DNA of 64,000 nt from an uncultured Flavonifractor sp. GTDB taxonomy: Bacteria > Bacillota > Clostridia > Oscillospirales > Oscillospiraceae. The notes beneath the pieces were generated by a model. The model was not told where the DNA came from. It saw nothing but the letters and a program-made list of their open reading frames with translations, and did not search any database. Made by a program: the position numbers and the translations under genes. Positions 40,681 to 62,779 of this stretch are shown piece by piece (the first letter of the stretch is position 1; every line of letters starts with the position of its first letter). The DNA lies in assembly GCA_947346365.1 (NCBI GenBank), contig CANAAV010000008.1:31879-95878 (forward strand), written 5' to 3'.

Positions 40681-40725
40681 AAGACGCCGCCCTCCAAAGA
40701 AATTTTCTCTGGAGGGCGGCGTCTT
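40681..40725. terminator. Terminator after the phospholipase C-like gene
   Basis: A perfect 16-bp stem (40681-40696 with 40710-40725), loop rich in A and T, 23 bases after the stop. It is the last clearly host element. Confidence 0.85.
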
Positions 40726-40765
40726 GTGCTGAGAGCTGTCAATTCTGGGCTGTGGTGATCGTGAT

Positions 40766-40843
40766 TGTAGCGCGACAAAATTTTTGAGAAACTCGGACAG
40801 CGAAAATGAGAAAAAATAGCGGATTTCTTAGAAGTAATTCTAA
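40766..40843. other. Possible Mu-like terminal sequence (right end of the phage)
   Basis: Starts TGTAGCGCGAC at 40766 and contains two loosely similar A-rich blocks (GCGACAAAA... at 40771 and GCGAAAATGAG... at 40800), then a CTTAGAA/TTCTAAG hairpin at 40827-40844. Mu-family ends begin with TG and carry repeated transposase-binding sites. The match is by position and look only; the exact end cannot be fixed without the other end. Confidence 0.4.
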
Positions 40844-40948
40844 GCCCGCCCGCTTGCGGCGACGGCCCCCAGAATGGGGAGCGGCCCCCGCAGGAGGGCG
40901 GGCGTTATAGGGCCCCCGGAGAAGCGGCACACGCCGCCCCCCGGGGCC
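40844..40948. terminator. Hairpin cluster at the end of the phage late operon
   Basis: GCCCGCCC (40844-40851) pairs with GGGCGGGC (40896-40903). A second long, imperfect GC-rich hairpin spans 40911-40948 (GGCCCC... with ...GGGGCC, inner GCGGC/GCCGC). They lie just beyond the last late gene stop (40970) and probably end late transcription. The second is followed by GTTTT on the plus strand, so it could also stop transcripts entering from the host. Confidence 0.55.
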
Positions 40949-40969
40949 GTTTTCATTGTGGGTGGCCGG

Positions 40970-41503
40970 TTACTCGCCCTCGGGCTCCCCGGGCCCGTCC
41001 TGGGCTTCCTGGGGGGCTTCCTGGGCCGGTTCCGGCTCCTGGTATTCCTCCCAGCCGTAAACGCCCGGCTCCCAGACGTTGGAGGCTGCGCTGGAGACCC
41101 ACCTCTTGCCGTTGTGGGTCACCTTCGCCCCCTGGTCGTAGGCGTCATGCGCCCCGATAGGCTGAATCCACTCCGGGAACTCCTCCAGGGGGTTGCCGAT
41201 GCGCGTCCACATGGAGGGCGTGGCCGAGGGCTTGGTATTCTGGCCAGCGTCCTTGACGTCGTGGATGGAGCGATAGAGCTGGCCCTCGTCCTGGACGATG
41301 TCGCCCGCCTTGCCCCGCCAGTTTTCATCCCACGGGGTGAAGAGGTCGGGGTACTCGGAGATCGTTGTCTCGTCGAGCTGCTGCTCCTGGGCCATCTTGA
41401 CGAACATGATCTCCGCGACGGCCTGGGCGGAGCTGCTCCGGCGAGCCGCCCGGTTCAATTCCCCGATAGACCGCTTCGGGGTCAGATACTGCACGTTGCT
41501 CAT
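40970..41503 (-). CDS. Tail-associated protein with CBM5/12-like C-terminal module
   Basis: 177 residues. The C-terminal part (about 80-155) repeats the spacing of chitin-binding-type modules: aromatic and Gly residues in WIQPIGAHDAYDQGAKVTHNGKRWVSSAASNVWEPGVYGW. An acidic, E/P/Q-rich tail follows. The N-terminal part (KRSIGELNRAARRSSSAQAVAEIMFV) is helical. Such modules are common at the end of phage tail-fibre regions, where they may bind surface glycans. ATG 41503 overlaps the upstream tail-protein stop by 4 bases. The last gene of the late operon. Confidence 0.65.
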   Translation of the reverse strand: MSNVQYLTPKRSIGELNRAARRSSSAQAVAEIMFVKMAQEQQLDETTISEYPDLFTPWDENWRGKAGDIVQDEGQLYRSIHDVKDAGQNTKPSATPSMWTRIGNPLEEFPEWIQPIGAHDAYDQGAKVTHNGKRWVSSAASNVWEPGVYGWEEYQEPEPAQEAPQEAQDGPGEPEGE

Positions 41504-43356
41504 TCGTAGGCACCTCCAAAGCCAGAAATAGAAACTTCGCCCTCATAGCCCTCATTCTTGGTGATGGTGAAGCGGATGTTGACGCCCCACTTGTCCGCCG
41601 TCTTGGTCTTGTTGGTGAAGTTATAGACCCGGTTAATCGCCACCATGGGGGTGATGTCCTCCCAGGTGGGCTCGGCGTCGAAGGCGTTGTTACAAGCCTC
41701 CACCAGAGCCGCCGCGCCCTCGATATGCCATGTCGGGGTGACCAGCACCTTGGATGCGGCCTCGTCCGTCTCCTCCGGCTCATTGAGCTGGAAACAGATG
41801 ACGCTCTCCTTCTTGGAGAATGTCCAGACCCGCACCGAGGTGGCGAAGTTGCCGTCCACGGCCTCCACCCGGAGCTGGTGGTTGCCATTGGTAAGCATGA
41901 GCCACCTCTCCCGAGTGAGCTCGATGGTCTCCTCTTGCCCCAGGGTAGCCTGATAGCTCCTGATCTGCACGTCGTCCACGAACTCGGTGACGACCACGTT
42001 GTCGCCCTCGATATCGGTGACGGTGTACTTCTCGGCGAAGCTGCCTGTCTTGTGGCCCAGGGCCATATCCTGGCCGGAGATTGCCGGTGCGCTGTTGGTG
42101 CGTTTGAAGGTGAGCCTCCGGTAGCTGGTGCCACCCTTGCCGTCCGTGACCATGATGGTGATGGTGTTGACGGAGTTGAGGTCGAGGGTGTAGAGCTTCT
42201 CAGAGGTGATCGCCACGCCAAGGGGCTCGCCCTTGGGGGCGTTGTTGATCGTGCGGATGGTCTCATCGTTGAGCTGCTCCGTCACGGTGAGGGTGTCGCC
42301 GTCCGCGTCGTTGACGGTATAATCGTAGGTGAAGCCCAGGTTTTTATCTCCCAGGTTGCCATCGACGCCGCTGATGGTGGGTGCGCTGTTGGTTCTGGTA
42401 AATGTCCACGTCCTGGTGGCCGTCCCGCCCTTGCCGTCGGTGACCACGACCTTCACGGTATGCGTCCCAAGGGACAATTCATCGACCGGGACGGAAATGG
42501 TATATACAAAATTTCGCGTCGGGCCGAACGACTTCGTCGTTCGGCCATCGATCGACTCCGTCGCCGTTAGCACGTCGCCGGAGTCGGGGTCGTCGACGCT
42601 GTACTGTATCGTGAAGTTGGTGTTCTTATCACCCAGATTGCGGTCACTGTCAGAGATCAGAGGGTCAGTGTTCAGGATTTCAAGGACGGGGCGAAAACCG
42701 ACGTACACGTCCCGATTCGTTGCACGGTCGTAGTTCCAGTAGCGGGCCGACACCCAGCCGCGAACCGCACGAAACGACGAATTTCTAGAATATACCTCTT
42801 GACACCAAGAGTAGCAGCCCATCCAATTCCAGAACTGATTGTGGGCACTCGTCTTGTCGGCAGCGGCGAGGGAGGTGTCCAGGTCGGACGATGTGGGGGC
42901 CGGGAGGCCGGTGATAACCTCCTCGCGGGTGATGAACCTGTCCCACTCGTTATTGGTGGGCGAGCCTCCCGCATATACGTCGCTTCCCCTATAAGTGCTG
43001 CCACCCGTCAGAACGCGGCACTTATAGGTCGCCCCGTCGATGGTGACGGTCTTGCCGGTGATGTAGCCCTGTTCGTTCAGATCGTTCCAGGAAACAGAGA
43101 CCAGGATGTTCCGGTCGCAGATCAGGAGGGTCTTGCTGCCGTCCTTGATCTTGTGCCACTGGAGCTTGTTGGCGTCCGCTGCCGGGGTGCTGCCGAGTGT
43201 GTAGTTTGCCATGCTCCCGCTCATTTGCGGGATGTCGCCGACGCCGCAGCCGCTATACGGCTCTGAGTCAGGACGCCAGGGCTTTGTGGGCCTTTTCAGT
43301 ATCGTACCGTTGTTGTAAAATCCGCCGAGCTTGACGAGGCCGAGATATTGCGCCAT
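41500..43356 (-). CDS. Large tail protein: lectin-like domain plus three Ig/cadherin-like repeats; probable DGR target
   Basis: 618 residues from ATG 43356, which has AAGGAG 7 bases upstream. N-terminal ~230 residues: TVTIDGATYKCRVLTGG..., NNEWDRFI, W-rich NQFWNWMGCYSWCQEVY and the ending VYVGFRPVLEIL, the layout of C-type-lectin-like/FGE-like folds used as displayed binding domains. Then three ~95-residue repeats (about 230-520), each with NSAP.ISG.D, GD..TVTE and VTDGKGGT elements. The C-terminus (DITPMVAINRVYNFTNKTKT) is unlike them. The reverse transcriptase gene lies immediately upstream and overlaps it by 89 bases. Probably the receptor-binding or adhesive tail protein. Its variable region would be internal, not C-terminal as in the best-known DGR targets. 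Confidence 0.75.
   Translation of the reverse strand: MAQYLGLVKLGGFYNNGTILKRPTKPWRPDSEPYSGCGVGDIPQMSGSMANYTLGSTPAADANKLQWHKIKDGSKTLLICDRNILVSVSWNDLNEQGYITGKTVTIDGATYKCRVLTGGSTYRGSDVYAGGSPTNNEWDRFITREEVITGLPAPTSSDLDTSLAAADKTSAHNQFWNWMGCYSWCQEVYSRNSSFRAVRGWVSARYWNYDRATNRDVYVGFRPVLEILNTDPLISDSDRNLGDKNTNFTIQYSVDDPDSGDVLTATESIDGRTTKSFGPTRNFVYTISVPVDELSLGTHTVKVVVTDGKGGTATRTWTFTRTNSAPTISGVDGNLGDKNLGFTYDYTVNDADGDTLTVTEQLNDETIRTINNAPKGEPLGVAITSEKLYTLDLNSVNTITIMVTDGKGGTSYRRLTFKRTNSAPAISGQDMALGHKTGSFAEKYTVTDIEGDNVVVTEFVDDVQIRSYQATLGQEETIELTRERWLMLTNGNHQLRVEAVDGNFATSVRVWTFSKKESVICFQLNEPEETDEAASKVLVTPTWHIEGAAALVEACNNAFDAEPTWEDITPMVAINRVYNFTNKTKTADKWGVNIRFTITKNEGYEGEVSISGFGGAYE
42522..42546. repeat. Perfect inverted repeat inside the tail gene, downstream of the putative variable region
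   Basis: Arms of 11 bases (42522-42532 and 42536-42546) with a 3-base loop (GAA on the coding strand). It encodes part of the first Ig-like repeat. A hairpin or cruciform shortly after the variable repeat is known to aid DGR homing in Bordetella phage; here it lies about 139 bases after the variable region, further than in that model. Confidence 0.7.
42685..42795 (-). other. Putative DGR variable region of the tail protein (residues about 188-224)
   Basis: This segment encodes SRNSSFRAVRGW...RDVYVGFRP, at the place where lectin-fold DGR targets vary, and ends in the GFRP motif usual at that boundary. The DNA differs in composition from its surroundings (AT-rich at 42780-42800). I did not find a matching template repeat, so the boundary and the call are inference. 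Confidence 0.45.
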
Positions 43357-44527
43357 AAGGTAGCTCTCCTTCCACTTTGATGAAGCGGTAGGGCGCGAAT
43401 ATCTTCGTCGCCAAATTGTAGGCACTTGCCCAGCGGGCAAAGCCGAGCCAGGAGTTGACTTCTTGCTGTATCTCCTTGCACGTCTTCTTGCCCTCCCTCA
43501 GCTTCGCAATCATAGCCTTGACCCGTCGCTTCTGCTTCCGCTTGGATTGCGTCCGAAGCTCCAGGTGCGTGGCTTTAATTTTGTAGCCGTAGGCGTTCAC
43601 GCCCTGCCGCAAATAGAATATTTTCGTCTTGCTGTTGAGATCAAGATGCAGCTTGTCTTTGACGAACTGCTTGATCTTCGCAAGCCACTCCCTCGCGGTC
43701 TCTTTGTTCGGCGCAATGATGACGGCGTCGTCGGCGTATCGCCTATAGAGCTTTGCCCCGAGGAAGCGGATGCAGAACTGATCGAGCTCATTGAGGGTAA
43801 TATTTGCGAAGTCCTGGGAGCTGACATTCCCCAGGGGGACGCCCTTTTCTCCTTCAGGGCTGGAGTCGATCACTTTGCAAAGAAGGCGATAAAAGCGGAG
43901 GAGGTCTTCGTAACGCTCCGGGTGCTTCTTTCGTAGCTTCTTGAACCGCTTCGCCAGGAGCCTTTTCAAGACTTGGCGGTCGATAGAATAGAAAAACTTT
44001 TTCACGTCGATCTTTATGACGGCAGCTTCGTCGCCCCACTTCATCCGGGCGACCCTCATGTCGTGCTGCACATCCAGCGCGGCCCGGATGGGCCCTTTCC
44101 CGTAAAGACACGCATAGGAGCGGTCTACAAATACGGGCCGGTAGATGTCCTGCAAGGCTTCATGGACGGTAGTCTGCACGATCTTGTCCCGGAGCTTTGG
44201 AATGTGGAGGCTGCGCTCCTTTGGCTCCGTGATCGTCCTGTGACGATAGGAGCCAGGGATATACTCCTTCTTTCGTTGATCTGGGTCTGGCCGCGCTTTG
44301 ATCGCCGTGAGCTCACGCCATAGTTGGACATTATTCACTTCGGAGAAGAGGTCGTATAAGACCGCCTCCCGAGTGTATTTCCGCTGCCCTCGGAGCGCGT
44401 TTTTATAGCTGGCCCCGATAGTATCCCACCCAACCATCTCCTCGTATGGTCTGAGCGGCATAATTGGCGGAATTATAGGGTGCTTGACCTTCTGCGCTGT
44501 CTTTACTAAAATGGGGAATTTCGTCAT
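43268..44527 (-). CDS. Reverse transcriptase of diversity-generating-retroelement type
   Basis: 419 residues from ATG 44527, which has AAGGAAAGGA about 7 bases upstream; the frame is open further, to 44806, but without support. RT motifs in order: R(H)RTITEPKERSLHIP (finger region), IKIDVKKFFYSID (first catalytic Asp about 174), GVPLGNVSSQDFANI (about 229-243) and YADD (264-267), then NAYGYKI. The GNxxSQ form of motif 4 in place of the usual QGxxxSP is the mark of DGR enzymes, which copy a template repeat with A-specific errors into a target gene. Group II intron features (X/maturase, En) are absent. The last 29 codons overlap the tail gene. No avd-type accessory gene is evident. Confidence 0.87.
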   Translation of the reverse strand: MTKFPILVKTAQKVKHPIIPPIMPLRPYEEMVGWDTIGASYKNALRGQRKYTREAVLYDLFSEVNNVQLWRELTAIKARPDPDQRKKEYIPGSYRHRTITEPKERSLHIPKLRDKIVQTTVHEALQDIYRPVFVDRSYACLYGKGPIRAALDVQHDMRVARMKWGDEAAVIKIDVKKFFYSIDRQVLKRLLAKRFKKLRKKHPERYEDLLRFYRLLCKVIDSSPEGEKGVPLGNVSSQDFANITLNELDQFCIRFLGAKLYRRYADDAVIIAPNKETAREWLAKIKQFVKDKLHLDLNSKTKIFYLRQGVNAYGYKIKATHLELRTQSKRKQKRRVKAMIAKLREGKKTCKEIQQEVNSWLGFARWASAYNLATKIFAPYRFIKVEGELPYGAISRPRQARRILQQRYDTEKAHKALAS

Positions 44528-44760
44528 TGTGGCATCCTTTCCTTTTGAGAACGGCTTGGCACCTATGACGCGGGTTGTTACCCACATTGTAGACCTCCCC
44601 CCACCTTCCCAATACGAGAGGGCCGGGCAGAGCTTGGTCACTGTTTTTACGCCGTCAAAGACAAGGCGAAGGATTACCTCTCCCTTGAAGTATAACAAGG
44701 ACTCGCCAGTAAAGCCGTAGCCGTACCAGCAAGGGGTAGACGTCCCTTTCCAGGAATATC
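44528..44760 (-). other. Unexplained 233-base segment upstream of the reverse transcriptase
   Basis: It is the only sizeable gap in the tail-fibre region. It is open in the RT frame but has no start with a ribosome binding site, and the two other frames give only short peptides. A small GGGT/ACCC hairpin lies near 44567-44580. In many DGRs the template repeat and its RNA lie here, but I could not align it to the putative variable region. Confidence 0.5.
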
Positions 44761-45078
44761 TCAGCCTTCTTCTGCAGGGTAGACGGTTCCGCCATAGCCG
44801 ACGCACCTCGCTTTCCTGATGCGTTCGATCTCGGCGATGTCCCCGTAAAACTCGAAGCCGTAGTCAGTGAGCTTGACCGTTGCCGGTTCGCCCGTGATGG
44901 AGCTGCGGCCCTCTATGGTCAGGCTGGCCTCGCCGGTGAGCTTCAGGCCATCCCTGGTGATGAGGGCCAGTTCGTCCCGGGGACGCCGCTGGCAGCTTTC
45001 GCATACCTGGGAGAGCCCACTGAAGAAATTCCCGAGGATGCAGCTCGCTTCTTTACGGGTGCAAGCGACCCTATACAT
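44761..45078 (-). CDS. Small phage protein with CxxC, fibre region, unknown function
   Basis: 105 residues from ATG 45078, which overlaps the preceding gene by 8 bases. It has a CESCQ pair near residue 28 and a beta-rich C-terminal half (LTGEASLTIEGRSSITGEPATVKLTDYGFEF). No family recognised. Likely a tail or fibre accessory protein by position. Confidence 0.55.
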   Translation of the reverse strand: MYRVACTRKEASCILGNFFSGLSQVCESCQRRPRDELALITRDGLKLTGEASLTIEGRSSITGEPATVKLTDYGFEFYGDIAEIERIRKARCVGYGGTVYPAEEG

Positions 45079-45382
45079 AGATTTTCCGCGCCACGGGGTC
45101 ATAGATGCCGGACGCGATTGCCACGGACGTTACGGAGACAAAATTGATGAGAAAGACGTTATTGACCATGTTGTTCAGGGTCGCGTCCTTCAGCACCTTG
45201 ATCTCACGCTGCGCGTCCGCGATCTGGCTGTCATGCAGGATAATGGTCTCCCGGTTCTGCCAGATACCGTCGTCCATGTGGTTCATGTTCGTCTGGCTCA
45301 CGGGCGTCCCTTCCTGGATGACCTCCTCGGTGATGATGTCGACCACATGGTCGAGCCATCCAATGCGCTCATAAGACTCCAT
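45071..45382 (-). CDS. Phage tail fibre-region protein with fibre N-terminal-like element
   Basis: 103 residues if started at ATG 45382 (GGAGG 12 bases upstream); ATG 45412 is the longer alternative. It contains TPVSQTNMNHMDDGI, a short element seen near the N-termini of many tail-fibre proteins of Firmicutes phages, then a helical stretch (LHDSQIADAQREIKVLKDA) and a hydrophobic C-terminal segment (MVNNVFLINFVSVTSVAIASG). Probably links fibres to the baseplate. Function inferred. Confidence 0.55.
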   Translation of the reverse strand: MESYERIGWLDHVVDIITEEVIQEGTPVSQTNMNHMDDGIWQNRETIILHDSQIADAQREIKVLKDATLNNMVNNVFLINFVSVTSVAIASGIYDPVARKIYV

Positions 45383-45701
45383 TGCTGCTTTCGACCTCCA
45401 TTTCTTTGACATTATATTTGAAGGCTACATAGAGCCCCTTGCCCGGTGTTTTCGTGAAGACCCGGTCGTCGGCCTTGGCGACGATGTCGCCGTCCTTATC
45501 CACCAGCTCCACGTTGGCCACGTCCCCGATGACGGTGTCGTCGAAGTAGATATAGACCCGCACGTCGGAGCCGTTGACCATGGTGCGGAACGGGGGGACA
45601 GTTTTCGGTTCTCCGTTCAGGGTATAGTTGGCGTGGTCGATGGAGTCGACAAAACGCCGCCCGATCTTCTGGATGCCGAGGTCAGTGAGTGTTTTCGCCA
45701 T
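45369..45701 (-). CDS. Hypothetical phage fibre-region protein
   Basis: 110 residues, ATG 45701 directly after the stop of the upstream gene. Beta-rich, with a PPFRTMVNGSDVRVYIYFDDTV segment and a compact Ig-like look. No family that I can name with confidence. The position between a gp48-type protein and fibre-linker proteins suggests a fibre or baseplate-decorating role. Confidence 0.55.
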   Translation of the reverse strand: MAKTLTDLGIQKIGRRFVDSIDHANYTLNGEPKTVPPFRTMVNGSDVRVYIYFDDTVIGDVANVELVDKDGDIVAKADDRVFTKTPGKGLYVAFKYNVKEMEVESSNGVL

Positions 45702-46805
45702 TTAGCGTCCGCCTCCTCTGGAATGTGTTGTATTTGAGCAGCGGGCCGACCGGGAGCACCTCAAGTATTCCTTGACGCCCTGCTGCGCCTTGGAGCCCGC
45801 TGTGAGCCCGGAGACCAGCCCCTTGTAGGTGGTGTTCTCCCCGAAGCAGTAACACTGCGGAGAGGCCGTAAAGGTGCCGATCTGCGGGAAGGTGACGTCG
45901 CTGGCCTCCGTCCGGCCCTGGGGGTTGATGGTCGAGGCGATGACGCTGCCCACGCCGCCGTTAATGTCGGTGGTGGGGGAGCAGCGGGTCGGCTCGGCGC
46001 ACCTGAGATATACCTTGATGCCGCGCTGCTCCTGGGATGCCGCTGCAAGGATAGAGCACAGCCCAGCATATAGGGTATATTCGCCGTAATGATAGAACTC
46101 CTCCGAGGCCGCGATGGTACCGGCTCTCGGGATATTGACGTCGCCGGACTCCGCCCGGTCGCCGATCACGATGTCCGACTTCAGGAGATAGCCGATGCTG
46201 GCCACATGGGGCCACACGCCGCAGACGAGCTGGTTGCAGCGGGGATAGTCGGAAACGCCCCGCTCCAGCCGGGAGAGCAGCAGGATGGTGTTGCCGCTTT
46301 CCGTCCCATAGAACGGTCTGCTGCTGCCCTCCTTGACCTTGCGAACCTCAGCGTCAATGACGGCGAGGTTGTTGACGCCGCTCTGCTTGCGGCCCTTCAG
46401 GAAGATAATAAACTCCGCCCAGTGTTCCGGGTCTTGTTCATAGACCGGCTCGATACGGCTCTGCTCATAGCCCAGAGCCGCGAGGACGTAGAGGATACCC
46501 TGGCGGGTGCCGCTCCACTGTGAAATAATGCCCTTCATGCAGAGCCGGGTGCGGTACGCCTCCGCATCCTCCCCCTCCAGCCTGGGCATATCGCGGTCTT
46601 GGCCGTGGACAGGGAGCATGACCTCCGACGCGCTGGCGACGTTGGCCTCGTCCCTGACCCGGAGGATCGCCGTCTTCAGATCATCGAACTCCCGCCCGAT
46701 GACCCGGAAGAAGATAGCGAACTGGTTGACTGCCCGGCGTCCTTTTTTCAGCGGAGCAAACAGAAGGTCGAACATATACTCGCCGAAGGTGTCAAACCGT
46801 TTCAT
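45702..46805 (-). CDS. Mu gp48-type tail/baseplate protein with duplicated C-terminal unit
   Basis: 367 residues. The N-terminal ~160 residues (KRFDTFGEYMFDLLFAPL..., VMLPVHGQDRDMPRLEGEDAEAYRTRL, GTRQGILYVLAALGYEQ) fit the tail-protein-I/gp48 group that closes the baseplate J ring. The C-terminal part carries two related units of about 55 residues (AGTIAASEEFYHYGEYTLYAG...YLRCAEPTRCSPTT and IGTFTASPQCYCFGENTTYKG...YLRCSRSARCSNTT), each ending in a YLRC..S.RCS.TT motif. The duplication is unusual and may bind fibres. ATG 46805 follows the J gene by 4 bases. Confidence 0.75.
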   Translation of the reverse strand: MKRFDTFGEYMFDLLFAPLKKGRRAVNQFAIFFRVIGREFDDLKTAILRVRDEANVASASEVMLPVHGQDRDMPRLEGEDAEAYRTRLCMKGIISQWSGTRQGILYVLAALGYEQSRIEPVYEQDPEHWAEFIIFLKGRKQSGVNNLAVIDAEVRKVKEGSSRPFYGTESGNTILLLSRLERGVSDYPRCNQLVCGVWPHVASIGYLLKSDIVIGDRAESGDVNIPRAGTIAASEEFYHYGEYTLYAGLCSILAAASQEQRGIKVYLRCAEPTRCSPTTDINGGVGSVIASTINPQGRTEASDVTFPQIGTFTASPQCYCFGENTTYKGLVSGLTAGSKAQQGVKEYLRCSRSARCSNTTHSRGGGR

Positions 46806-46809
46806 CCGG

Positions 46810-47940
46810 TCACTCCCTTCTGACCGTCACGGAAACGGCCCCCAGGATGATGACCTTGTCCTTGTCCAGCTTGACGTCCTGCTCCGGGGCCGCGATTTTG
46901 ACGTTGGTAATGTCGCGGTAGCCACTGCGGATTGCGTGGTTGATGTCTGAGAGGGTAAGCTCGTAGAGCTTGCGGCCCTTGCGGACGGCCAGGAGCTCCG
47001 CGAGGATGGAGTGGACGCGGCCCTTGATCTCCTCGTCAGTCGCCGCGTCAACGGTGGTGACGGTGACGCTGATGTCCTGGGCCACGGTGACGGATGACTT
47101 CACCAGGATATTATCATACGGCCCGGCGATCTTGTCAACAGCTTCCCGGACAAGTTTCAACAAACCTTCCGTCGCCTCGCCCGCCGTCCCCGTGACGATG
47201 ACGTCCACGGTGCCCTGGCCCCGGGGGTGGTCGCAGTCCGCCTGGGCGAACAGGACGCCGGGGACGCCCTCCGCTGTGTTGATAAATGCGTCCTCGATCG
47301 CCCGCTGCGCCAGCTCCGACCAGGAGCGGAGGGTGCGCGTCCTTGCGCTCTCGTCATCCTCGGTATCGCTGCCCTCCCGGGTTATCCAGTCCTCGCCGTT
47401 GCTGATCTCCACCTCGCCGATATAGGTGAGGGACGTGGTGATCTGGCCTTGGGGGACATTGTAGCGGGTGCCCTCGTTCTCGGCCTCCACCAGCACGTCG
47501 ACCGTCCGGGCCCCTTTCTGGAGGACGGCGGGCTCCAGAGAAAAGAAGCGCAGCTCCTCGCCGTTAATGTCCAGGGCGGTCTTGAATACCTGCCCCTTGG
47601 CGATTTTGACCGCCTCGCCCTCCATATCCAGGCGGGTGACGGTTACAAGGCCCTGGGCCTTCTGCGCCCGCTTGCGCTTCTTGGAGTAGTCCGCCATCTT
47701 CAGGTCAAGCCATATCCCGGTGGCATGGGAAACGAACATATTATTTAAAACCAGCCGGAGCAGCTCAATGACCTCGATCTTGATACGGAGCGCAATCATG
47801 AGCATGGTGTGAAAGACGCCGCCCGAGTGAAAGTTGGTGATGACGAAGCCCTCGTTCTTCAGCTCCTCCACCTTAGCGTCCCGCAGTTCCTCCAGGCTGG
47901 GAACCGGGAGAACAGCGTCAAGGGTTTTCTTGTCGATCAT
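46810..47940 (-). CDS. Baseplate J-like protein (Mu gp47)
   Basis: A baseplate wedge protein of 376 residues. Typical Baseplate_J features: N-terminal helical segment with LNNMFVSHATGIWLDLKMADY, then the beta domain VTVTRLDMEGEAVKIAKGQVFKT and the central GVPGVLFAQADCDHPRGQGTVDVIVTG. Overlaps the gp46-type gene by 4 bases and is followed by the gp48-type gene, the normal order. Confidence 0.9.
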   Translation of the reverse strand: MIDKKTLDAVLPVPSLEELRDAKVEELKNEGFVITNFHSGGVFHTMLMIALRIKIEVIELLRLVLNNMFVSHATGIWLDLKMADYSKKRKRAQKAQGLVTVTRLDMEGEAVKIAKGQVFKTALDINGEELRFFSLEPAVLQKGARTVDVLVEAENEGTRYNVPQGQITTSLTYIGEVEISNGEDWITREGSDTEDDESARTRTLRSWSELAQRAIEDAFINTAEGVPGVLFAQADCDHPRGQGTVDVIVTGTAGEATEGLLKLVREAVDKIAGPYDNILVKSSVTVAQDISVTVTTVDAATDEEIKGRVHSILAELLAVRKGRKLYELTLSDINHAIRSGYRDITNVKIAAPEQDVKLDKDKVIILGAVSVTVRRE

Positions 47941-48347
47941 TCTGCGATCACCTCCACGCTGACCGCGTCGATAACGATATTGAGCGTTCTGGCTTCATCC
48001 TCTCCCGCGAAGCGGAAGGTGCAGCGGAGCCGGGCGGTATCGTCGGCGCGGGTGATTGTTATGCCGATAGTTTCCGGGAGAATGACCTCCCGCCTCTGTA
48101 GCTTGCTTTTGACGCGCTGCGTCATTTCCAGGCGGGTGAGCTCAGTGTCCTCTGACTGTATGAAGTCGTAGAGGCCCCAGCCGAACTCGGCGTCGTAGAA
48201 CAGATCACCCGGCTGCGTGAGGGCCTCCAGAACGATATTCTGATAGAGGCAGTCCAGCCTGGAGCACAGGGGTGCGTCCCCGTCCGCCGCCTGGGTGAGC
48301 TGCCAGGAGTCATCCAGGCGGATGTCGGTATCTTTCAAGCCCGTCAC
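47937..48347 (-). CDS. Baseplate wedge protein, gp25/W-like (Mu gp46 position)
   Basis: 136 residues with the gp25-like core: ENIVLEALTQPGDLFYDAEFGWGLYDFI and a later LRCTFRFAGEDEARTLNIVI strand pair. It overlaps neighbours by 4 bases each side, consistent with coupled translation of wedge proteins. Confidence 0.8.
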   Translation of the reverse strand: MTGLKDTDIRLDDSWQLTQAADGDAPLCSRLDCLYQNIVLEALTQPGDLFYDAEFGWGLYDFIQSEDTELTRLEMTQRVKSKLQRREVILPETIGITITRADDTARLRCTFRFAGEDEARTLNIVIDAVSVEVIAE

Positions 48348-48703
48348 AACCGCACCTCCCCGATAATCGCCGGGGCCAGCTCGCCATAGGGTAGCGCGAT
48401 CGCCACCATCGCCCCCTGCTGGAACTGCTTCTTGGACTTGATCTGGGGGAGGGCCGGGAACGCCTTGTCAGGGCTCCCGAAGCGGTCGAGGACAGTGAGC
48501 TTGTACTCATACCAATGAGCCACGATATGGCCCCGGAAGCTGCCCCCGGTGTCATCGTTGAAGATGACCAGCTCCTTGATCTCGTAGGTATCGAGCTTCT
48601 TTACCGAGTCCACCTTTGCGAAAACGACGGTGGGGAGCTTCAGATGCGGATAGTCCACGGCGATGGATTTCTTGACGATTGACTTGACCATTTCCTCAAG
48701 CAT
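48344..48703 (-). CDS. Baseplate spike/OB-fold-like protein (Mu gp45 position)
   Basis: 119 residues, beta-rich. QGAMVAIALPYGELAPAIIGEVRL at the C-terminus resembles the OB-fold strand pattern of spike-type proteins, but it is shorter than Mu gp45 and lacks an obvious needle tip. Assigned mainly by its position between the hub and gp46-type genes. Confidence 0.55.
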   Translation of the reverse strand: MLEEMVKSIVKKSIAVDYPHLKLPTVVFAKVDSVKKLDTYEIKELVIFNDDTGGSFRGHIVAHWYEYKLTVLDRFGSPDKAFPALPQIKSKKQFQQGAMVAIALPYGELAPAIIGEVRL

Positions 48704-48726
48704 TGACGCGCCCCTCCTTTCTGCGG

Positions 48727-49497
48727 TTAGAAGTAGATATAGGTGCGGATGAAGCCGGAGTCGTTGGTGGTGGACACCACCTTCAGCACCTCCTGCTCCC
48801 CGCTAATCTGGGGGTGGATAAGGTTGATTTTATGGGAGTGTTTGACGAAGGGCGCGGAGACTGTCTCCAGCTCCCACACGCCGCCCGCCCGGGTCAGGTT
48901 GATAATATTGACCCCATGCTCGAAGGTGTAGACCTTGCTCTGCTCCGGCTTCTCGTCCCAATAGAACGTGCCGCCAGAGAAGAAAAAGGGCACCTTGAGC
49001 CCCCAGGCCGCATTGACGGTGTTGATCGCCTGGACGACGCTCTGCTCCCGGATGGGGAGCATCTTCCGCTTCGGGTACCCCTTCGAGGCGAGCTTCATCT
49101 TGGAGAGCCCAGCCTTAGAGAGGAAGAAGGAGATCATCTCCTGGGGCGTAGTGTTCAGGAAGGTGTCGTTGATGATGGTCTCCTCCAGGAGCAGCATCTC
49201 GTCCTTCAAGTTGACCTCGTTGATGTAGGCCCCGCCGTCGTACTCCTTGGCGACAAAGCCGGAGAAAACCTCATCCAGAGAACCGTTGTAGCCCATCTGG
49301 ATGGAGCCGGGGGCCTTGCGCGGAAGGGCGACCTTCGGACGGAACTGCTCCGTGAAGCGGATTTTTGCCCAGTCAAAATAGGATGACTTGGCGGAGTATA
49401 TTTCGACCTCGATGCCCTTGTCGAAAGAGTAGCCTCCGGCTTGGGCCGCGATCTGCGGATAATAGAGCTCTGTTGTTTCCACGGTGCGCCTCCTCAA
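48727..49497 (-). CDS. Baseplate hub protein (late control gene D / Mu gpP-like)
   Basis: 256 residues. It has an N-terminal beta domain (FDWAKIRFTEQF, YNGSLDEVFSGFVAKEYDGG), the helical linker TPQEMISFFLSKAGLSKMKL and the later QAINTVNAAWGLKVPFFFSGGTFYWDE region typical of gpD/gp44-type hub proteins. Starts at ATG 49497, overlapping the upstream gene by 4 bases. Confidence 0.7.
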   Translation of the reverse strand: MRRRTVETTELYYPQIAAQAGGYSFDKGIEVEIYSAKSSYFDWAKIRFTEQFRPKVALPRKAPGSIQMGYNGSLDEVFSGFVAKEYDGGAYINEVNLKDEMLLLEETIINDTFLNTTPQEMISFFLSKAGLSKMKLASKGYPKRKMLPIREQSVVQAINTVNAAWGLKVPFFFSGGTFYWDEKPEQSKVYTFEHGVNIINLTRAGGVWELETVSAPFVKHSHKINLIHPQISGEQEVLKVVSTTNDSGFIRTYIYF

Positions 49498-50099
49498 TAT
49501 GGCATTTGCGACATAACCTTGTTTAAGGCGGCGGTCGCCGCGCCGGTGACCATGTCACTGGCGGGCGACTTGCCCCGCTTGGTTCCCAGGTATTGCTGAT
49601 AGTCCGGGTTAAGGTTGCTCGCTGCCGCTGTCGCAGCCTTGGCTTTGCTGCTGGCGGACGAGCCCCCGGAACCACCCGAGCTGCTGGTTGCTGTAATGGT
49701 CTGGGGAATGTATTCCCACAGCTCCAGGCTTGCCGTAAGCTGCGACTTCTTGTTCTCCCCCTTATGGGTGAGCTTCTTGAAGATGACCTTCTCAATGCCG
49801 TGGGCTGCTGTGTCCTCGCTGACGATGGGAATGGGCTGCGGGACATTCTGACCCGGCTTTCGGAATATCTCACGCAGGACGGCGTACCGCTCGTATTTGG
49901 TCTGGCTCTCGGTGTCGTCGATGATGAGCTCGATGATAACCTTGGCGTCCTCATAGCCGGTGGCCTGTTTGGGCTTGGTCGCGCTGCCTTCAACCTCCTG
50001 CTCGTCTACCTTTGCCGTCTCCGTGACCTCAATGCTTTTGATAAGGCCAGGGAGGACGACCCCGTTGAGCTTGATACGTTCGTCTTCAATGAAGATCAT
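49494..50099 (-). CDS. Tail/baseplate protein (position of Mu gpN)
   Basis: 201 residues. The N-terminal half is beta-rich (IKLNGVVLPGLIKSIEVTETAKVDEQ), the middle has VIFKKLTHKGENKKSQLTASLELWEYIP, and a low-complexity Ser/Gly/Ala linker (about 138-165) precedes a short C-terminal tail. It lies between tape measure and hub genes, where DNA-circularisation/tail gpN proteins occur. I do not recognise a named domain with certainty. Confidence 0.6.
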   Translation of the reverse strand: MIFIEDERIKLNGVVLPGLIKSIEVTETAKVDEQEVEGSATKPKQATGYEDAKVIIELIIDDTESQTKYERYAVLREIFRKPGQNVPQPIPIVSEDTAAHGIEKVIFKKLTHKGENKKSQLTASLELWEYIPQTITATSSSGGSGGSSASSKAKAATAAASNLNPDYQQYLGTKRGKSPASDMVTGAATAALNKVMSQMPY

Positions 50100-50116
50100 G
50101 GTCGTCCCCCCTTTCC

Positions 50117-53026
50117 TTATGCCGGGCTCGGTACGGCGTCCGGGTCGTCGTCGCCGTTGCCGTTGCTGTAGTCCTCGACTTCCTTCAGCAGCGAGAGCAG
50201 CGTCTGCAAGTCCTTAATCTTCTTCAGATCGACCTGCATGATGAGCTTTTGAATGATGACCTGCTTGCCGCCGCTGCTGGAGCCATCGCCTTCGGCGGTG
50301 TCGGTGTCCTCGCTGCTGCGGTCGCCGCCGATGTTGACCTTGGCGACCGGCTCGCGCTGCAAGGCCACCTTTGCTTTCTGGAGCCCCTGCTCCATTGCGT
50401 CGGCGGGGGCGTCCTGGGCCAAGGTCAGCCCGTGGGCGTAGGTGGTCATGGTACGCTGGCCCGATAGGGTCAGGGTGGAGAGCGGGCCCTCCTTCGCGTC
50501 GGAGAACGGGAGGAGGTTGCGGATTTTCTGGAGCCCGCCCTTGACCGCGTCCACTGCGCCGGAGAAGGCTGAACGGATACCGTTGGCGAAAGTGCTGACG
50601 ATCTTCTTGCCGGAGTCGAAGAACCACGTCACGGCCCCCGTGACCGTGTTCTTGATATTGCCCAGGCCGGTCATAAAGGCCGACCCAGCCTCGGTGAATT
50701 TCTGGCCGATGCCCTGAACGATGCCGCTCATGGTGGACGTGAACTTGCCGCCGATCTCGGAGAGCTTTCCTCCGGTGAGATTGTCCAGGAAGGTGAAGCC
50801 CGCCGTGTAGTAGCCCTTAACGCCCTCCATCGCAGCGGCGGCGATGCCTTGGACTCCGCCGCCATGTTGCTCGTAGGCCGTCCGCATATTCCCCAGCTTC
50901 TCGCTGACCGTGGCTCCTGCTGCGTCCAGAATGCTGCCGACTGTGCCAGTGATGGGAGATAATTTCTCAGAAAACTTGTCCTTGATTGCGGTCAATTTGC
51001 CGCCTGTGAGGTTGTCCAGGAAATTGTAACCCGCGCCGAAGACGCCCTTGACCCCCTCGACCGTGGCCGCTGCCGCGCCTCGGATGCCGCCGCCGTTCTC
51101 CTCGTAGGCGGCTTTCAGGCCGTCCAGCTTCCCCCCGGTCAGGCTGTTCAGGGTGTTGAATCCAGCCTCGGTGATGCCCCGGACGCCCTCCATAGTAGCC
51201 GCTGCCACGCCCCGGATGCCGCCGCCGTTCTCCTCGTAGACGGCCTTCAGCTCACCCAGCCGCTGCGCTGCCGCGTCCTTCAGCCCGGAGAGCTTGCCCC
51301 CGGTGAGATTGTCCAAGAAGGTGTACCCGGCTGTGTAGACGCCCTTGACGCCCTCCATCGCAGCCGCTGCCGCGCCTCGGATACCGCCGCCGTGTTCCTC
51401 GTAGGCTCGCTTCATGTTGTCCAGCTTCTCCTGGACGGTGGCTTTCGCCGCCCCCAGGACGCGCCCGATCACGCCGCCGATCGCGCCGAAGATATTCCTG
51501 GCGACCTCCAGGGCTGCGCCCAGCTTCTCCTTGAAGAAGCCCAGAATTGCGTTGACGCCGTTGCGGAACCACTCGCACTTGTTGTAGAGCAGCACCAGGG
51601 CCGCTATGAGGGCCACGATGCCTATGACTATCCAGGTCACGGGGTTGGCGAGCAGGGCCGCTGTAAAGCTCCACACGGAGCCTATAAGCGGTGCCAGTGC
51701 GCCCTTCGCCAATAGGAACCCCGCCTTGAGTATCTTGAAGGCGGAGACCGCCTTGGTAATGACGAGGCCGACGCCGCCGACGACCGCGATCACGGTGCCC
51801 GCCACGGTGAGGAAGCCGCCGATCGCCAGCACGATGAGCATGATGATCTTGACGAGCTCCTTGTTCTCCTCTATCCAGGAGGCGACCTTGGTGAGCACTT
51901 GCTCCCCCTTCCCCATGAGGTCGTTGACCGTGGGGAGGAGGCTGTTGCCTATGGACTCCGTCACGTTGTGGATGCGCTGCTGCAAGCGAGCGAACCGCTC
52001 CGGTTCGGTCTCCTGGATAGCAGACGCCATATCCTGGGCGACTCCGGTGCCCTGACCCATCGCGTCGTAGAGGTTGAGGATATTATCCTGCAAGTCCCCG
52101 GTCTTGGAATACAACAGGTCGATGAGGGCGACGGCTTCGGTGTCCCCGAAAGCCTTTTGCAGCTCCATCTTCTCAGCGGCGTCCATTGTCTCGCCGAACT
52201 TGCCCCGAAGCTGTTCGAGGATTTCAGGCATAGACAGGAGCTGATTGTTGGCGTCAAGGAAGGAGAGGCCCAATGCCTCGCCGCCTTTCGCCGCCGAGCG
52301 GAGGAAGGCTTTGTACTTTGTACCGGCTTCCGCCCCTCCCATGGTGGCTTGCAGCATACCGAGGATTGCAAGCTGTTCCTCCAGAGGGACGTTGGCGGTG
52401 GTGGCCGACGCGCCCAGGCTCTGGATGCCTTGGGCCATGCCGGTGCCGGACGTCTTGAACGCCCGGACGCTTTCCGCTATTCCAGCCGAGAACATTTCCC
52501 CGAACTGGATGTCGGTGAGATCGTCGTAGTAGCCCTTATAGATGCCGTAGCCGGTGGCGAACAGGGAGGTCATTTCCGAGGCCGTCGACTTGGTGGCCTT
52601 GGCGGTCAGGGCTGCGAGAGCGGTAAACTCGGCGACGCCCTCGTCCGACAGGGACGATATGCCGCTCTTGATGTCATAGGCCGCGCTGATGAAGTCGGCC
52701 TTTGTGGTGCCGCTCCACTGGTCGGAGAAGTTTCGGGCCGCACTCTCCAGCGCGTCCAGGTCTTCCACGCCCAGGGAGGCCAGCTCGCCCAAGGCCCGGC
52801 GTGTTTCAAACGTGGCTTCTACGGGGGCGAGCACTGCGCTGGTGATCTGGGAGCCAGCCCCCTGCATCGCAGTGCCCGCCTTGATGAATCCGCCGAAGGT
52901 CTGCCCCAGCGCGTCCAGCTTGGACACGTCCGCCCCCACGCGGGAGGCGATGCCAGCCAGCGGGCCAGAGAGGTGGTCGACCATGTTCATGACAAGCGAC
53001 AATTTGAAGATGGATTCTAAGCTCAC
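50117..53026 (-). CDS. Tail tape measure protein
   Basis: 969 residues. The N-terminal 400 residues form the phage-related tail-tip TMP region (TKADFISAAYDIKSGISSL, GYGIYKGYYDDLTDIQFGEMFSAGIAESV, TMGGAEAGTKYKAFLRSA). A hydrophobic block with three to four membrane-like helices follows (about 390-500), then four tandem repeats (about 540-760), and a helical C-terminus. The start is GTG 53026 with GGAGGTGAG 10 bases upstream, a few bases after the end of the frameshifted chaperone frame. The length should set tail length; by the usual ~1.5 angstrom per residue this gives roughly 145 nm, an estimate only. Confidence 0.92.
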   Translation of the reverse strand: MSLESIFKLSLVMNMVDHLSGPLAGIASRVGADVSKLDALGQTFGGFIKAGTAMQGAGSQITSAVLAPVEATFETRRALGELASLGVEDLDALESAARNFSDQWSGTTKADFISAAYDIKSGISSLSDEGVAEFTALAALTAKATKSTASEMTSLFATGYGIYKGYYDDLTDIQFGEMFSAGIAESVRAFKTSGTGMAQGIQSLGASATTANVPLEEQLAILGMLQATMGGAEAGTKYKAFLRSAAKGGEALGLSFLDANNQLLSMPEILEQLRGKFGETMDAAEKMELQKAFGDTEAVALIDLLYSKTGDLQDNILNLYDAMGQGTGVAQDMASAIQETEPERFARLQQRIHNVTESIGNSLLPTVNDLMGKGEQVLTKVASWIEENKELVKIIMLIVLAIGGFLTVAGTVIAVVGGVGLVITKAVSAFKILKAGFLLAKGALAPLIGSVWSFTAALLANPVTWIVIGIVALIAALVLLYNKCEWFRNGVNAILGFFKEKLGAALEVARNIFGAIGGVIGRVLGAAKATVQEKLDNMKRAYEEHGGGIRGAAAAAMEGVKGVYTAGYTFLDNLTGGKLSGLKDAAAQRLGELKAVYEENGGGIRGVAAATMEGVRGITEAGFNTLNSLTGGKLDGLKAAYEENGGGIRGAAAATVEGVKGVFGAGYNFLDNLTGGKLTAIKDKFSEKLSPITGTVGSILDAAGATVSEKLGNMRTAYEQHGGGVQGIAAAAMEGVKGYYTAGFTFLDNLTGGKLSEIGGKFTSTMSGIVQGIGQKFTEAGSAFMTGLGNIKNTVTGAVTWFFDSGKKIVSTFANGIRSAFSGAVDAVKGGLQKIRNLLPFSDAKEGPLSTLTLSGQRTMTTYAHGLTLAQDAPADAMEQGLQKAKVALQREPVAKVNIGGDRSSEDTDTAEGDGSSSGGKQVIIQKLIMQVDLKKIKDLQTLLSLLKEVEDYSNGNGDDDPDAVPSPA
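50760..51410 (-). repeat. Four tandem repeats in the tape measure gene
   Basis: Four copies of a unit reading YE(E/Q)xGGGIRGxAAAxxEGVKG...AGYxFLDNLTGGKL. Copies begin near 51405, 51240, 51105 and 50885 on the minus strand and are spaced by about 45-75 residues. DNA similarity is high enough (for example GAGATTGTC-like stretches at FLDNLTGG) to allow recombination that changes tail length. Confidence 0.8.
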
Positions 53027-53043
53027 ACTGCTCTCACCTCCAT

Positions 53044-53642
53044 TTACGAGGAGAACACTTCGCTGATCGCTCGAGCGAGGATGTCCTTCTCCATCTCTTG
53101 GACGACGCGAGCCTTTGCCACATAGTCCAGAAATACGCCGATGTCGCTGATTGCTTCAGGGTCAAATTGCTCTAAGAGAGGCAGGGGAAGGAAGCGATAT
53201 ATCTCCAGGAGCCCTGTTTCTATAGCGTTCTCCCTGACCCCCGCGACCTTCTCCCTTAGAGTTTCTTCAAATTTACCGCGTTAGTCAGGCCCAGGATGTC
53301 CGTGAGCTTGCCGCCGATCGCAATGGCCACGCCGGGATAGGTCTCGGCGTCGGCGGTGAGCCTGGCTTCATCCTCTTCCACCACGGCGTCCAGCATGAAC
53401 CGTTTGCTGGCCTTGGATGCGCCGATCTGGGCCAGCGTTTTGACGTAGCGGTCATAGCTGGCCACGCTGGGCCGCTTGAAGCGGTAAACGAGCTCGACCT
53501 CGTTCTCGTCGTCCTCGGAGACCGTCATGCCGATGCGGTAGACCTTGCCGTACTTCGCCTTCAGCTCCTCGTCGCTGGCCAGCTTGGGCGCAGCGGAGGA
53601 AATGGGGTTATCTTTCATGTTTTCCATGGGGGTGTCCTCCAT
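53044..53642 (-). CDS. Tail assembly chaperone, long form made by -1 frameshift (G-T type)
   Basis: Reading the upstream 128-codon frame to AAT-TTG (codons 124-125) and slipping back one base continues in a second frame as KFEETLREKVAGVREN... for about 74 more codons to TAA 53044, just before the tape measure gene. The downstream frame has no start codon of its own with a ribosome binding site. The layout copies lambda G/GT and Mu gp41. The long form would bridge the tape measure protein to the tube during tail assembly. Confidence 0.8.
53256..53642 (-). CDS. Tail assembly chaperone, short form
   Basis: 128 residues from ATG 53642. Acidic N-terminus, then KYGKVYRIGMTVSEDDENEVELVYRFKRPSVASYDRYVKT and a helical region. 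It resembles short tail assembly chaperones by size, charge and position between the tube and tape measure genes. The frame ends at 53256; a slippery heptamer lies five codons earlier. Confidence 0.78.
   Translation of the reverse strand: MEDTPMENMKDNPISSAAPKLASDEELKAKYGKVYRIGMTVSEDDENEVELVYRFKRPSVASYDRYVKTLAQIGASKASKRFMLDAVVEEDEARLTADAETYPGVAIAIGGKLTDILGLTNAVNLKKL
53268..53274 (-). promoter_or_regulatory. Programmed -1 ribosomal frameshift site A_AAT_TTG
   Basis: Reading minus strand from 53274, the heptamer AAATTTG fits X_XXY_YYZ exactly in the frame of the chaperone gene (AAT is codon 124, TTG codon 125). The zero frame ends three codons later and the -1 frame is open for 74 codons. Confidence 0.85.
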
Positions 53643-53667
53643 TTCTCAATTATTCTGGGAATAACGC

Positions 53668-54105
53668 TCAGGCGGGCTCCAGGCCGTCCGTGACGATGCC
53701 GCCGACGATCATCATGTCGATGTCCACGGTCAGGCCCTTGTCGCCCTGGGCGGCTTTGTGGCTTCGCTTGGTGAGCTTGACGATCTTCAGCTCGTCCATG
53801 TGGGTCTTCTCCCCCTCGTTGGCGTAGGAAACGACGATGGAGGGGATGGTCAGTTTGTAGAAGGGGATGCCCTGGGATTTACACCATTTCAGGAACTCCT
53901 CGTAGTCGTCCCGGAGCAAGGAGATTTTCCCGGAGGACTTATAGTTTCCGGTGCCATAGCCGCGAGGCCGGTGGCCGTATCCGTAGGATTCCTCCATCTC
54001 CATCTCGTCGTCGTAGCTGATCTCCTGCACAACGAGAGCCAGACCGGGGAACTTGACGTCGACGTCGCCCCAGTCGTAGGCTTTGCCGTTTACTTTGAGG
54101 CTCAT
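53668..54105 (-). CDS. Probable tail tube protein
   Basis: 145 residues, beta-rich, with the long central loop MEMEESYGYGHRPRGYGTGNYKSSGKISLLRDD typical of tube proteins of contractile phages. It follows the sheath gene by 21 bases and precedes the chaperone gene. Assigned by fold-like pattern and position (Mu gpM equivalent). Confidence 0.8.
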   Translation of the reverse strand: MSLKVNGKAYDWGDVDVKFPGLALVVQEISYDDEMEMEESYGYGHRPRGYGTGNYKSSGKISLLRDDYEEFLKWCKSQGIPFYKLTIPSIVVSYANEGEKTHMDELKIVKLTKRSHKAAQGDKGLTVDIDMMIVGGIVTDGLEPA

Positions 54106-54126
54106 AGTCTCTTATCCTCCCTTCTG

Positions 54127-55572: not shown

Positions 55573-55578
55573 TGCTTC

Positions 55579-55809
55579 TTAGCCTCGCTTTCCTTGGGGT
55601 GCGCCCATGGGGGCCCCGGTAAAATCGGCAACCGCCTGGAGGAACGCCTCCTCGGTCATAGCCCTGCCGGGCTTCCAGTCATTCGCGGCACATACGCCAG
55701 CGAAGATGGGCCGCGTAACCTTGTGCTTCTCCCGGAGCGTATCAATCGACAGCAGCTCCTGGGGCTGCGCCGCTGCGGGCGCAGCTTCCGGCTTGCTTCT
55801 ACTCGCCAT
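55579..55809 (-). CDS. Small conserved phage protein (Mu gp38 position)
   Basis: 76 residues; an Ala/Pro/Gln-rich N-terminus and a helical C-terminus (IDTLREKHKVTRPIFAGVCAANDWKPGRAMTEEAFLQAVADF). Overlaps the gp37-type gene by 11 bases and ends 6 bases before the sheath gene. No function known to me. Confidence 0.6.
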   Translation of the reverse strand: MASRSKPEAAPAAAQPQELLSIDTLREKHKVTRPIFAGVCAANDWKPGRAMTEEAFLQAVADFTGAPMGAPQGKRG

Positions 55810-56320
55810 CTGTATTCTCCTTTCCGTTTATTTTCTCGATCTCGACCACCTCGACGTGGGTCAGCGGCCCGAAGTCCGTGTCCTTGTAGACGCCGCCGTT
55901 GAAGGTGACCGTCACGCGGACGGCGACCTGGGCCTTGAGCAGCGCGTCCTCGGTATCGACCCACTCCACGCCCTCTATCTCCAGCGGGACGAAATTCCCG
56001 TCGACCGTGATGCCACGGTCAAGTAGCGAGACGAACTTCTCCAGCATAGCCTCCACGGTGTCGTCTGTGTAGTCGCCTATGAGTACAACGAAGGTGACAG
56101 CCCGGTCAAAAACCTTGCGCCGTTTGTGTTTCGCTCCCTCTTCATCCCTAAATCGCTTTTTGGAGCCGTTTCGGGCGTAGGCTTCCCGTTCAAACAGAAC
56201 TGCACCGATGTGGGACTCTTGGCTTTTCTGGAGGGCTTTCAGGGCTGTGTACGGTCTCGACTTGAGCCCCGCCGCCACCAACTTCTCCAGGAGGTATTGC
56301 TTGCTTTGCCCGTAGAGCAT
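55799..56320 (-). CDS. Mu gp37-like protein (DUF1834 type), possible tail terminator
   Basis: 173 residues. Alternating strands and helices (VFDRAVTFVVLIGDYTDDTVEAMLEKFVSLLDRGI, AQVAVRVTVTFNGGVYKDTDFG) fit the gp37/tail-terminator fold. Position between gpG and sheath genes agrees. ATG 56320 follows the gpG stop by 3 bases. Confidence 0.7.
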   Translation of the reverse strand: MLYGQSKQYLLEKLVAAGLKSRPYTALKALQKSQESHIGAVLFEREAYARNGSKKRFRDEEGAKHKRRKVFDRAVTFVVLIGDYTDDTVEAMLEKFVSLLDRGITVDGNFVPLEIEGVEWVDTEDALLKAQVAVRVTVTFNGGVYKDTDFGPLTHVEVVEIEKINGKENTDGE

Positions 56321-56323
56321 GGG

Positions 56324-56815: not shown

Positions 56816-56818
56816 AGC

Positions 56819-57277: not shown

Positions 57278-57294
57278 GCCGCCCCTCCTCTCCG

Positions 57295-58188: not shown

Positions 58189-58212
58189 AACGCATTATCC
58201 TCCTTTTGTTCG

Positions 58213-58653: not shown

Positions 58654-58659
58654 AGTGCC

Positions 58660-59682: not shown

Positions 59683-59817
59683 TTTCCGGTGTCCTCCTTC
59701 ATGCTTGCGCCGCGCCCCGTTATAACGCCGTTAGTACGCCCCACAACGCCCCCCGGGGCCCTGCCCCGTAACTTTACCCTCCCCGGCGTCGGCGTTGCTG
59801 TGTGGGCCCCTGTGCGC

Positions 59818-62766: not shown

Positions 62767-62779
62767 AGCTCTCGCCTCC

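What the first reader, a model, noticed from the sequence alone, without database searches (positions are those of the whole stretch)
41500..44527. Probable diversity-generating retroelement in a Mu-like prophage, with the reverse transcriptase upstream of its target
The RT has YADD and the GNxxSQ form of motif 4 seen in DGR enzymes and none of the group II intron domains. It directly precedes and overlaps a tail protein whose N-terminal lectin-like domain ends in GFRPVLE, the classic setting of a DGR variable region. Two things differ from the textbook system: the order is RT then target, and the variable domain is internal, followed by three Ig-like repeats. I could not see a template repeat or an avd gene near the RT.
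Basis: partly seen in the sequence, partly recalled or inferred. Interest (0 to 1): 0.85.

Follow-up and report, generated by a model that had tools for sequence, protein, structure and literature searches.

The report
Phage diversity generator missing its template
A gut bacterium carries a virus with a known machine for rapidly rewriting one of its own proteins, but here a small deletion appears to have removed the machine's template and a helper gene, probably leaving that protein fixed in its last-written form.

Summary
[quoted passage not shown] The prophage is a relative of Mushuvirus mushu, whose DGR is published and was reported active (order avd-TR-RT-target, variable region inside the target gene). 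Among 22 relatives with the region upstream of RT visible, 22 carry avd and a TR (20) or TR-like stretch (2), including two metagenomic sisters 97-98% identical to the window. Relative to those sisters the window lacks 454 bp: all but the first 23 codons of avd, plus the whole TR, with 2 bp of microhomology at the junction. The window's variable region (42687-42779) differs from the sisters' TR at 9 positions, 9 of 9 at template adenines (P = 1.8e-7), so it is a product of past mutagenic homing. RT and target ORFs are intact. No second TR copy was found in the assembled host genome (85.8% complete). Most likely: a known kind of DGR disarmed by deletion, with an idle RT. Not excluded: rewriting by a template from a co-resident relative; one relative (L011) has a variable region that fits another phage's TR better than its own.

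The parts
43268..44527 (-). DGR-type reverse transcriptase, intact ORF, 419 aa, YADD, GNVSSQ
   Evidence: about 72% identical to Mushu RT, about 99% to sisters L009/L010
41500..43356 (-). DGR target protein (Hoc-like decoration protein in Mushu), 618 aa, N-terminal variable domain then Ig-like repeats; start overlaps the RT gene by 89 nt
42687..42779 (-). variable region (VR), residues 193-224 of the target: SSFRAVRGWVSARYWNYDRATNRDVYVGFRPV
   Evidence: 9 of 9 mismatches to the sister TR are at template A (P 1.75e-7); coordinates
44655..44795 (-). avd remnant: first 23 codons of avd then a foreign frame, 46 aa in all
44727..44730 (.). deletion junction: 454 bp (rest of avd plus entire TR) absent relative to L010 (and L009); 2-bp microhomology (CT)
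40766..64000 (-). Mushu-like (Mu-type) prophage, right end near 40766, cut by the contig end at 64000

Best explanation
This is a Mushu-type diversity-generating retroelement disarmed by a deletion. In intact relatives the TR RNA, between avd and RT, is copied by the RT (with Avd) into adenine-mutated cDNA that replaces the VR in the middle of the adjoining virion-protein gene. In this prophage 454 bp carrying the TR and nearly all of avd are gone, with 2 bp of microhomology at the junction. RT and target remain intact, so the phage keeps the VR sequence last written before the loss, and the RT has no template of its own. Shown: homology, deletion relative to sisters, A-only mismatches, intact RT and target ORFs, no second TR copy in the assembly. 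Inferred: that homing no longer happens, that the loss is recent, and that the target works as a virion decoration or adhesion protein.
For: Collinear alignment with sisters L009/L010 at 97-98% on both sides of the gap, which is 454 bp against L010. TR identical in L009 and L010; window VR 9/9 mismatches at A, L010 VR 14/14, L009 partial VR 3/3; window vs L010 VR 9/9 differences at TR-A positions. avd found in 22 of 22 relatives with that region visible; TR-VR pair in 20, TR-like stretch in the other 2 (L012, L013, cut inside RT). 229 of 239 TR-VR mismatches at A over the 19 of those loci given. Own genome: L010:4900-6010 matches only at 3-447 and 900-1111 plus the VR. RT dN/dS 0.13 vs L010 (7 synonymous, 3 nonsynonymous changes) and 0.07 vs L009 (9 and 2). 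Mushu DGR reported active (PMC5883640, passages).
Against: The genome is a fragmented assembly, 85.8% complete, in 44 contigs; the contig ends at window 64000 within the prophage, so a TR elsewhere cannot be excluded. The junction is seen in one assembly only (1 of 400 family genomes, the own one; 0 exact hits in viral contigs). No reads were available. An intact RT with few nonsynonymous changes could mean it still has a use, although the counts are small and the changes may predate the loss.
Confidence: 0.85

Rival explanations
1. The deletion is an assembly artefact and the real prophage carries an intact Mushu-type DGR.
For: Metagenome assemblies of DGR loci may collapse: sister contig L068/L050 joins TR directly to the right flank of VR, losing RT and the target N-terminus. 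A 99.9% identical contig piece in another genome (L014) starts about 16 bp right of the junction.
Against: The junction is not at TR/VR and has only 2 bp of shared sequence, too short for a k-mer assembler to join without spanning reads (general knowledge).
Confidence: 0.12
2. The locus stays diversifiable in trans: its RT uses TR RNA and Avd from a co-resident or superinfecting relative. (Not exclusive of the best explanation.)
For: RT and VR are intact. In L011 the VR fits the TR of L010 (0 of 9 mismatches off A) better than its own TR (5 of 15 off A), while other segments are 74-82% identical.
Against: No such template in the assembled genome. The second DGR in the same genome has a TR that aligns with this VR no better than chance overall (local score 10; 38 of 300 shuffles reach it), although the best piece is 13 of 16 identical bases at the 3' end of both. 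L011 could also be explained by gene conversion or a chimeric contig.
Confidence: 0.1
3. RT of another class (group II intron, retron or defence RT) beside a phage protein, unrelated to diversification.
For: Many RT profiles match: NCBIfam group_II_RT_mat 112 bits, Drt3a 62 bits, retron St85 59 bits; 70 PADLOC families, best 94.5 bits (that library lists no cut-offs).
Against: All 5 NCBIfam matches lie below their curated cut-offs (112 vs 300; 62 vs 200). The closest phage RTs stand beside avd and TR-VR pairs.
Confidence: 0.01

Closest known systems
DGR of Faecalibacterium phage FP_Mushu / Mushuvirus mushu (MG711460, BK063464; PMC5883640)
   Same: Same gene order around RT and target, RT-target overlap of 86-89 nt (window 89), VR inside a Hoc-like protein; RT about 72% and target about 80% identical
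   Different: Mushu has full avd and a TR; the window lacks both
IMG/VR sister contigs L009 (3300035326_000337) and L010 (3300005460_000133)
   Same: 97-98% nucleotide identity; window VR fully explained by their TR
   Different: They keep the stretch with avd and TR; their VRs differ from the window's
Degraded DGRs in cyanobacteria (PMC7517822, two passages seen)
   Same: DGR parts surviving after loss of others: RT alone in Anabaena sp. 90; remnant TR-VR homology without RT in a paralog (all3226)
   Different: Here RT and target both persist and only TR and avd are gone, in a phage with near-identical intact sisters for comparison
Bordetella phage BPP-1 DGR
   Same: RT similarity (26.9%, E 2e-23)
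   Different: BPP-1 order is target-avd-TR-RT and its VR is terminal in mtd (recalled); here RT precedes target and VR is internal

Membership tests
Diversity-generating retroelement | DGR-type reverse transcriptase | tested here: met
   PHROG 1423 346 bits; best PDB hit 8ub7; brt hit; nearest phage RTs belong to avd/TR/VR loci
Diversity-generating retroelement | Variable region in a target gene, differing from a template at adenines | tested here: met
   9 of 9 mismatches at A, but against the sisters' TR
Diversity-generating retroelement | Template repeat in cis | tested here: not met
   None found in window or assembled genome; present in sisters L009/L010
Diversity-generating retroelement | Accessory gene avd (where the lineage uses one) | tested here: not met
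   Only 23 of 119 residues remain; sister L010 avd scores bAvd 104.5 bits
Diversity-generating retroelement | Active mutagenic homing | not testable with these tools
   Needs reads or a lysogen
Diversity-generating retroelement | C-type-lectin fold of the variable domain (common, not universal; recalled) | tested here: inconclusive
   No sequence match; structure prediction switched off
Mushu-like Mu-type prophage | Collinear late genes and right end | tested here: met
   26 of 28 Mushu proteins given matched in order; 25 of them near full length, Avd 23 residues only; two small downstream proteins unmatched
Mushu-like Mu-type prophage | Mu-type transposase | tested here: inconclusive
   Contig ends before that region; transposase A not found in the genome at E 1e-20, without a positive control

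The most novel reading that the evidence does not exclude
DGR variable regions in this phage group can be rewritten by templates of other phages. A phage that has lost its own template, like this one, would then be a recipient that still changes when a relative shares the cell. The L011 variable region, matching L010's template at 73 of 73 non-A positions inside surroundings that are 74-82% identical, would be a trace of such cross-phage writing.
Probability: 0.15. Interest if true: 0.7.

Novelty: new member of a known kind. Interest (0 to 1): 0.38.

Why it matters
It explains why an RT and a classic variable domain sit side by side with no template: the template was deleted. With near-identical intact sisters it is a natural before-and-after pair for asking whether DGR loss freezes a phage's variable protein, and a caution that an RT beside a variable-looking domain does not prove a working DGR. 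The L011 case suggests a testable route by which phages might share templates.

Tried and rejected
Template in the window or genome: a full-length A-tolerant scan of both strands of the window found only the VR itself (next best 28 of 93 positions off A); the earlier scan listed mostly the VR itself on the minus strand and is weaker. Self-comparison of 40600-46000 and of 40000-52000 gave no TR-VR pair. A whole-genome DNA search found the VR plus two chance-level pieces of 15 and 19 bases. The second RT in the genome (C6, 31% identical) belongs to a separate complete DGR on another prophage (11 of 11 mismatches at A).

Deletion shared by a lineage: junction 27-mer, 0 exact hits in viral contigs; junction 25-mer with up to 2 mismatches, only the own genome among 400 family genomes. 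In 'phages' 4 records matched the junction region, Mushu-type, each in two pieces. L014/G309 (99.9% identical piece) starts beyond the junction and is uninformative. The RT searches gave 4 of 400 family genomes and 3 of 394 order genomes at E 1e-100, own genome included; the genus search had only the own genome.

Loci dropped from the 22: L063 and L064 (RT 28-29% identical, another DGR type); L048, L053, L059, L061 (no RT region); L056 and L068 (no RT); L014 and L016 (start after the junction). L029, L036, L037, L040, L041, L045, L050-L052, L055, L057, L058, L060, L065-L067 are other stretches of contigs already listed. The 22 are not independent: L001 and L002 are one species and L038 and L047 are close. 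One search left out L009 (partial VR), L012 and L013. One search compared 15 TRs, leaving out L042, L043, L046, L049.

Errors of mine: one search's TR-VR statistics were off by one base and were redone. One search's 'hyb==TR10 False' comes from an offset mistake; the letters printed agree with the TR up to its 3' end. For L011, one search counts 10 of 16 mismatches at A and 10 of 15, because the stretch was set differently.

Literature: six searches and 'find' passages only of PMC11792537, PMC5883640, PMC10805732, PMC8144416, PMC6199706, PMC12629997 and PMC7517822. I saw no description of this deletion there; no paper was read whole.
Full report
What is there. On the minus strand of the window lies a reverse transcriptase gene (43268-44527) followed by a 618-residue protein (ATG at 43356, stop at 41500) that starts inside the end of the RT gene, an 89-nt overlap. 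The RT belongs to PHROG 1423 (346 bits). Its best solved-structure match is 8ub7, 'Reverse transcriptase' (E 1e-26; that this is the BPP-1 DGR enzyme is recalled). The nearest phage relatives are Mushuvirus mushu records and a faecal contig, MT836657, at about 72% identity. The second protein is about 80% identical to the Mushu 'Hoc-like head decoration' protein.

The prophage. Of 28 Mushu proteins compared, 26 match the window in order, 25 of them near full length. Avd matches over 23 of 119 residues only, and two small downstream proteins have no match; a 177-residue ORF with a carbohydrate-binding module (CBM_5_12) stands in that place. The right end of the phage is near 40766. The window's right edge is the end of contig C8, so the left part of the phage is not seen.

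Where the template went. In Mushu the order is avd, TR, RT, target. Self-comparison shows a ~93-nt TR between avd and RT and its VR in the target, with mismatches almost only at template adenines: 14 of 14, 11 of 11 and 11 of 12 in L001-L003. Two IMG/VR contigs, L009 and L010, are 97-98% identical to the window on both sides and carry these parts. Compared with L010 the window lacks 454 bp, with a two-base ambiguity at the junction: all of avd after codon 23 and the whole TR. Searching the host genome with the L010 stretch gave the two flanking pieces and the VR, nothing else.

The variable region is a written copy. The TR is identical in L009 and L010. The window VR (42687-42779) differs from it at 9 of 93 positions, all 9 at template A (20 A in the TR; hypergeometric P 1.75e-7). 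L010's own VR differs at 14, all at A. Window and L010 VRs differ from each other at 9, all at template A. Read in the VR frame, the TR gives SSNRAVRGWVSARNWNNNNATNRNVNVGFRPV, asparagine-rich as DGR templates usually are (recalled).

Is the loss usual? I examined 22 relatives with the region upstream of RT visible: L001-L003, L009-L013, L015, L028, L033, L034, L038, L039, L042, L043, L044, L046, L047, L049, L054, L062. All 22 have avd (in L044 split by a frame break). 20 have a TR-VR pair (partial VR in L009). L012 and L013 end inside RT and have a TR-like stretch. Over the 19 loci given to, 229 of 239 TR-VR mismatches are at A; 6 of the 10 exceptions are in L011. The window is the only locus found with RT but without avd and TR. 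Other damage exists in the group: L003 (MT836657, marked unverified) lacks about 136 bp inside its RT gene relative to the window; L068 has the TR running straight into the right flank of the VR, without RT (possibly an assembly collapse); L056 has no RT and a different target N-terminus.

How it most likely works now. With no TR and no Avd, the RT has nothing of its own to copy, so the target should stay as last written. RT remains open, with dN/dS 0.13 against L010 (7 synonymous, 3 nonsynonymous changes) and 0.07 against L009 (9 and 2), which fits a recent loss but does not prove one. That the deletion is real rests on the junction: 2 bp of microhomology should not mislead a k-mer assembler in the way TR/VR repeats can (general knowledge). 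Reads were not available.

A possible complication. L011, a relative that is 74-82% identical to L010 in seven segments along avd, RT and target, has a VR that matches L010's TR at 73 of 73 non-A positions but its own TR at only 67 of 72. The two TRs differ at 7 positions; the VR equals L010's TR at 6 of them, and at the seventh L010's TR has A. Because two of the 7 are A in L011's TR, only five positions discriminate. The 60 nt left and right of the VR are 46/60 and 50/60 identical to L010, so the foreign tract is confined to the VR. As a control, among 15 loci compared with 15 TRs the own TR leaves the fewest (or equally few) mismatches off A in 13; the exceptions are L011 (5 against 0) and L047 (1 against 0 for its close relative L038). 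Cross-phage templating, local gene conversion or a chimeric contig could each explain L011. If templating, a TR-less phage like this one could still be rewritten. The same host genome carries a second complete DGR on another prophage (L030), but its TR aligns with this VR no better than chance overall (38 of 300 shuffles reach the score; the best piece is 13 of 16 bases at the 3' ends).

Comparison with what is known. The Mushu DGR was described in PMC5883640, which reports an Avd homologue in Mushu, a Hoc-like target and read variability at the VR (passages). PMC11792537 found a less clear signal in Mushu and discusses temporary inactivation (passages). PMC10805732 found the DGR target to be the main divergent site between ancient and modern Mushu (passages). 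Partly degraded DGRs are known in cyanobacteria (PMC7517822, passages). So the kind is known; the new part is this template-less derivative with near-identical intact sisters. As a DGR it fails two tested features (TR in cis, avd), so it is best filed as a remnant of a Mushu-type DGR, not as a functional member.

Noticed in passing
L011:5689-5781 (TR) and 7767-7859 (VR): The VR fits the TR of another phage (L010; 0 of 9 mismatches off A) better than its own TR (5 of 15 off A), inside surroundings 74-82% identical: possible cross-phage templating, gene conversion or chimera.
   Followed up: partly
L030:4663-7951 (G000 contig C6): A second, complete DGR in the same genome on another prophage: FGE-sulfatase-type target, bAvd, TR, RT; 11 of 11 mismatches at A.
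   Followed up: partly
L068:3353-3892 (same contig L050, L040): A sister contig (98.6% to L010 over 5.1 kb) in which the unmutated TR runs directly into the right flank of the VR, with RT and target N-terminus missing (about 2.06 kb); TR-VR recombination or assembly collapse.
   Followed up: partly
window 43268-43356: RT and target genes overlap by 89 nt in different frames; 86-89 nt in 10 of 11 relatives checked and 62 nt in one. GenBank annotation of Mushu starts the target later.
   Followed up: partly
L003:6850-6930 (MT836657): The RT gene lacks about 136 bp relative to the window (residues about 290-334 unmatched), so this relative keeps avd, TR and VR but probably has a broken RT, or an assembly error.
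   Followed up: no
window 40970-41503: 177-residue ORF with CBM_5_12 carbohydrate-binding module downstream of the target, where Mushu has two small ORFs that find no match in the window.
   Followed up: no
window 45711-46049: The P2-I-like tail protein matches the C-terminal part of its Mushu relative twice; sister L010 shows the same internal duplication.
   Followed up: no
L056:4022-5910: A Mushu-like phage stretch without RT or avd match, whose target keeps the C-terminal domains but has another N-terminus.
   Followed up: no
L014:1735-1760: In another genome of the family a 99.9% identical phage piece stops inside the target gene and continues into DNA without match to these phages; truncated prophage or chimeric contig.
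   Followed up: no
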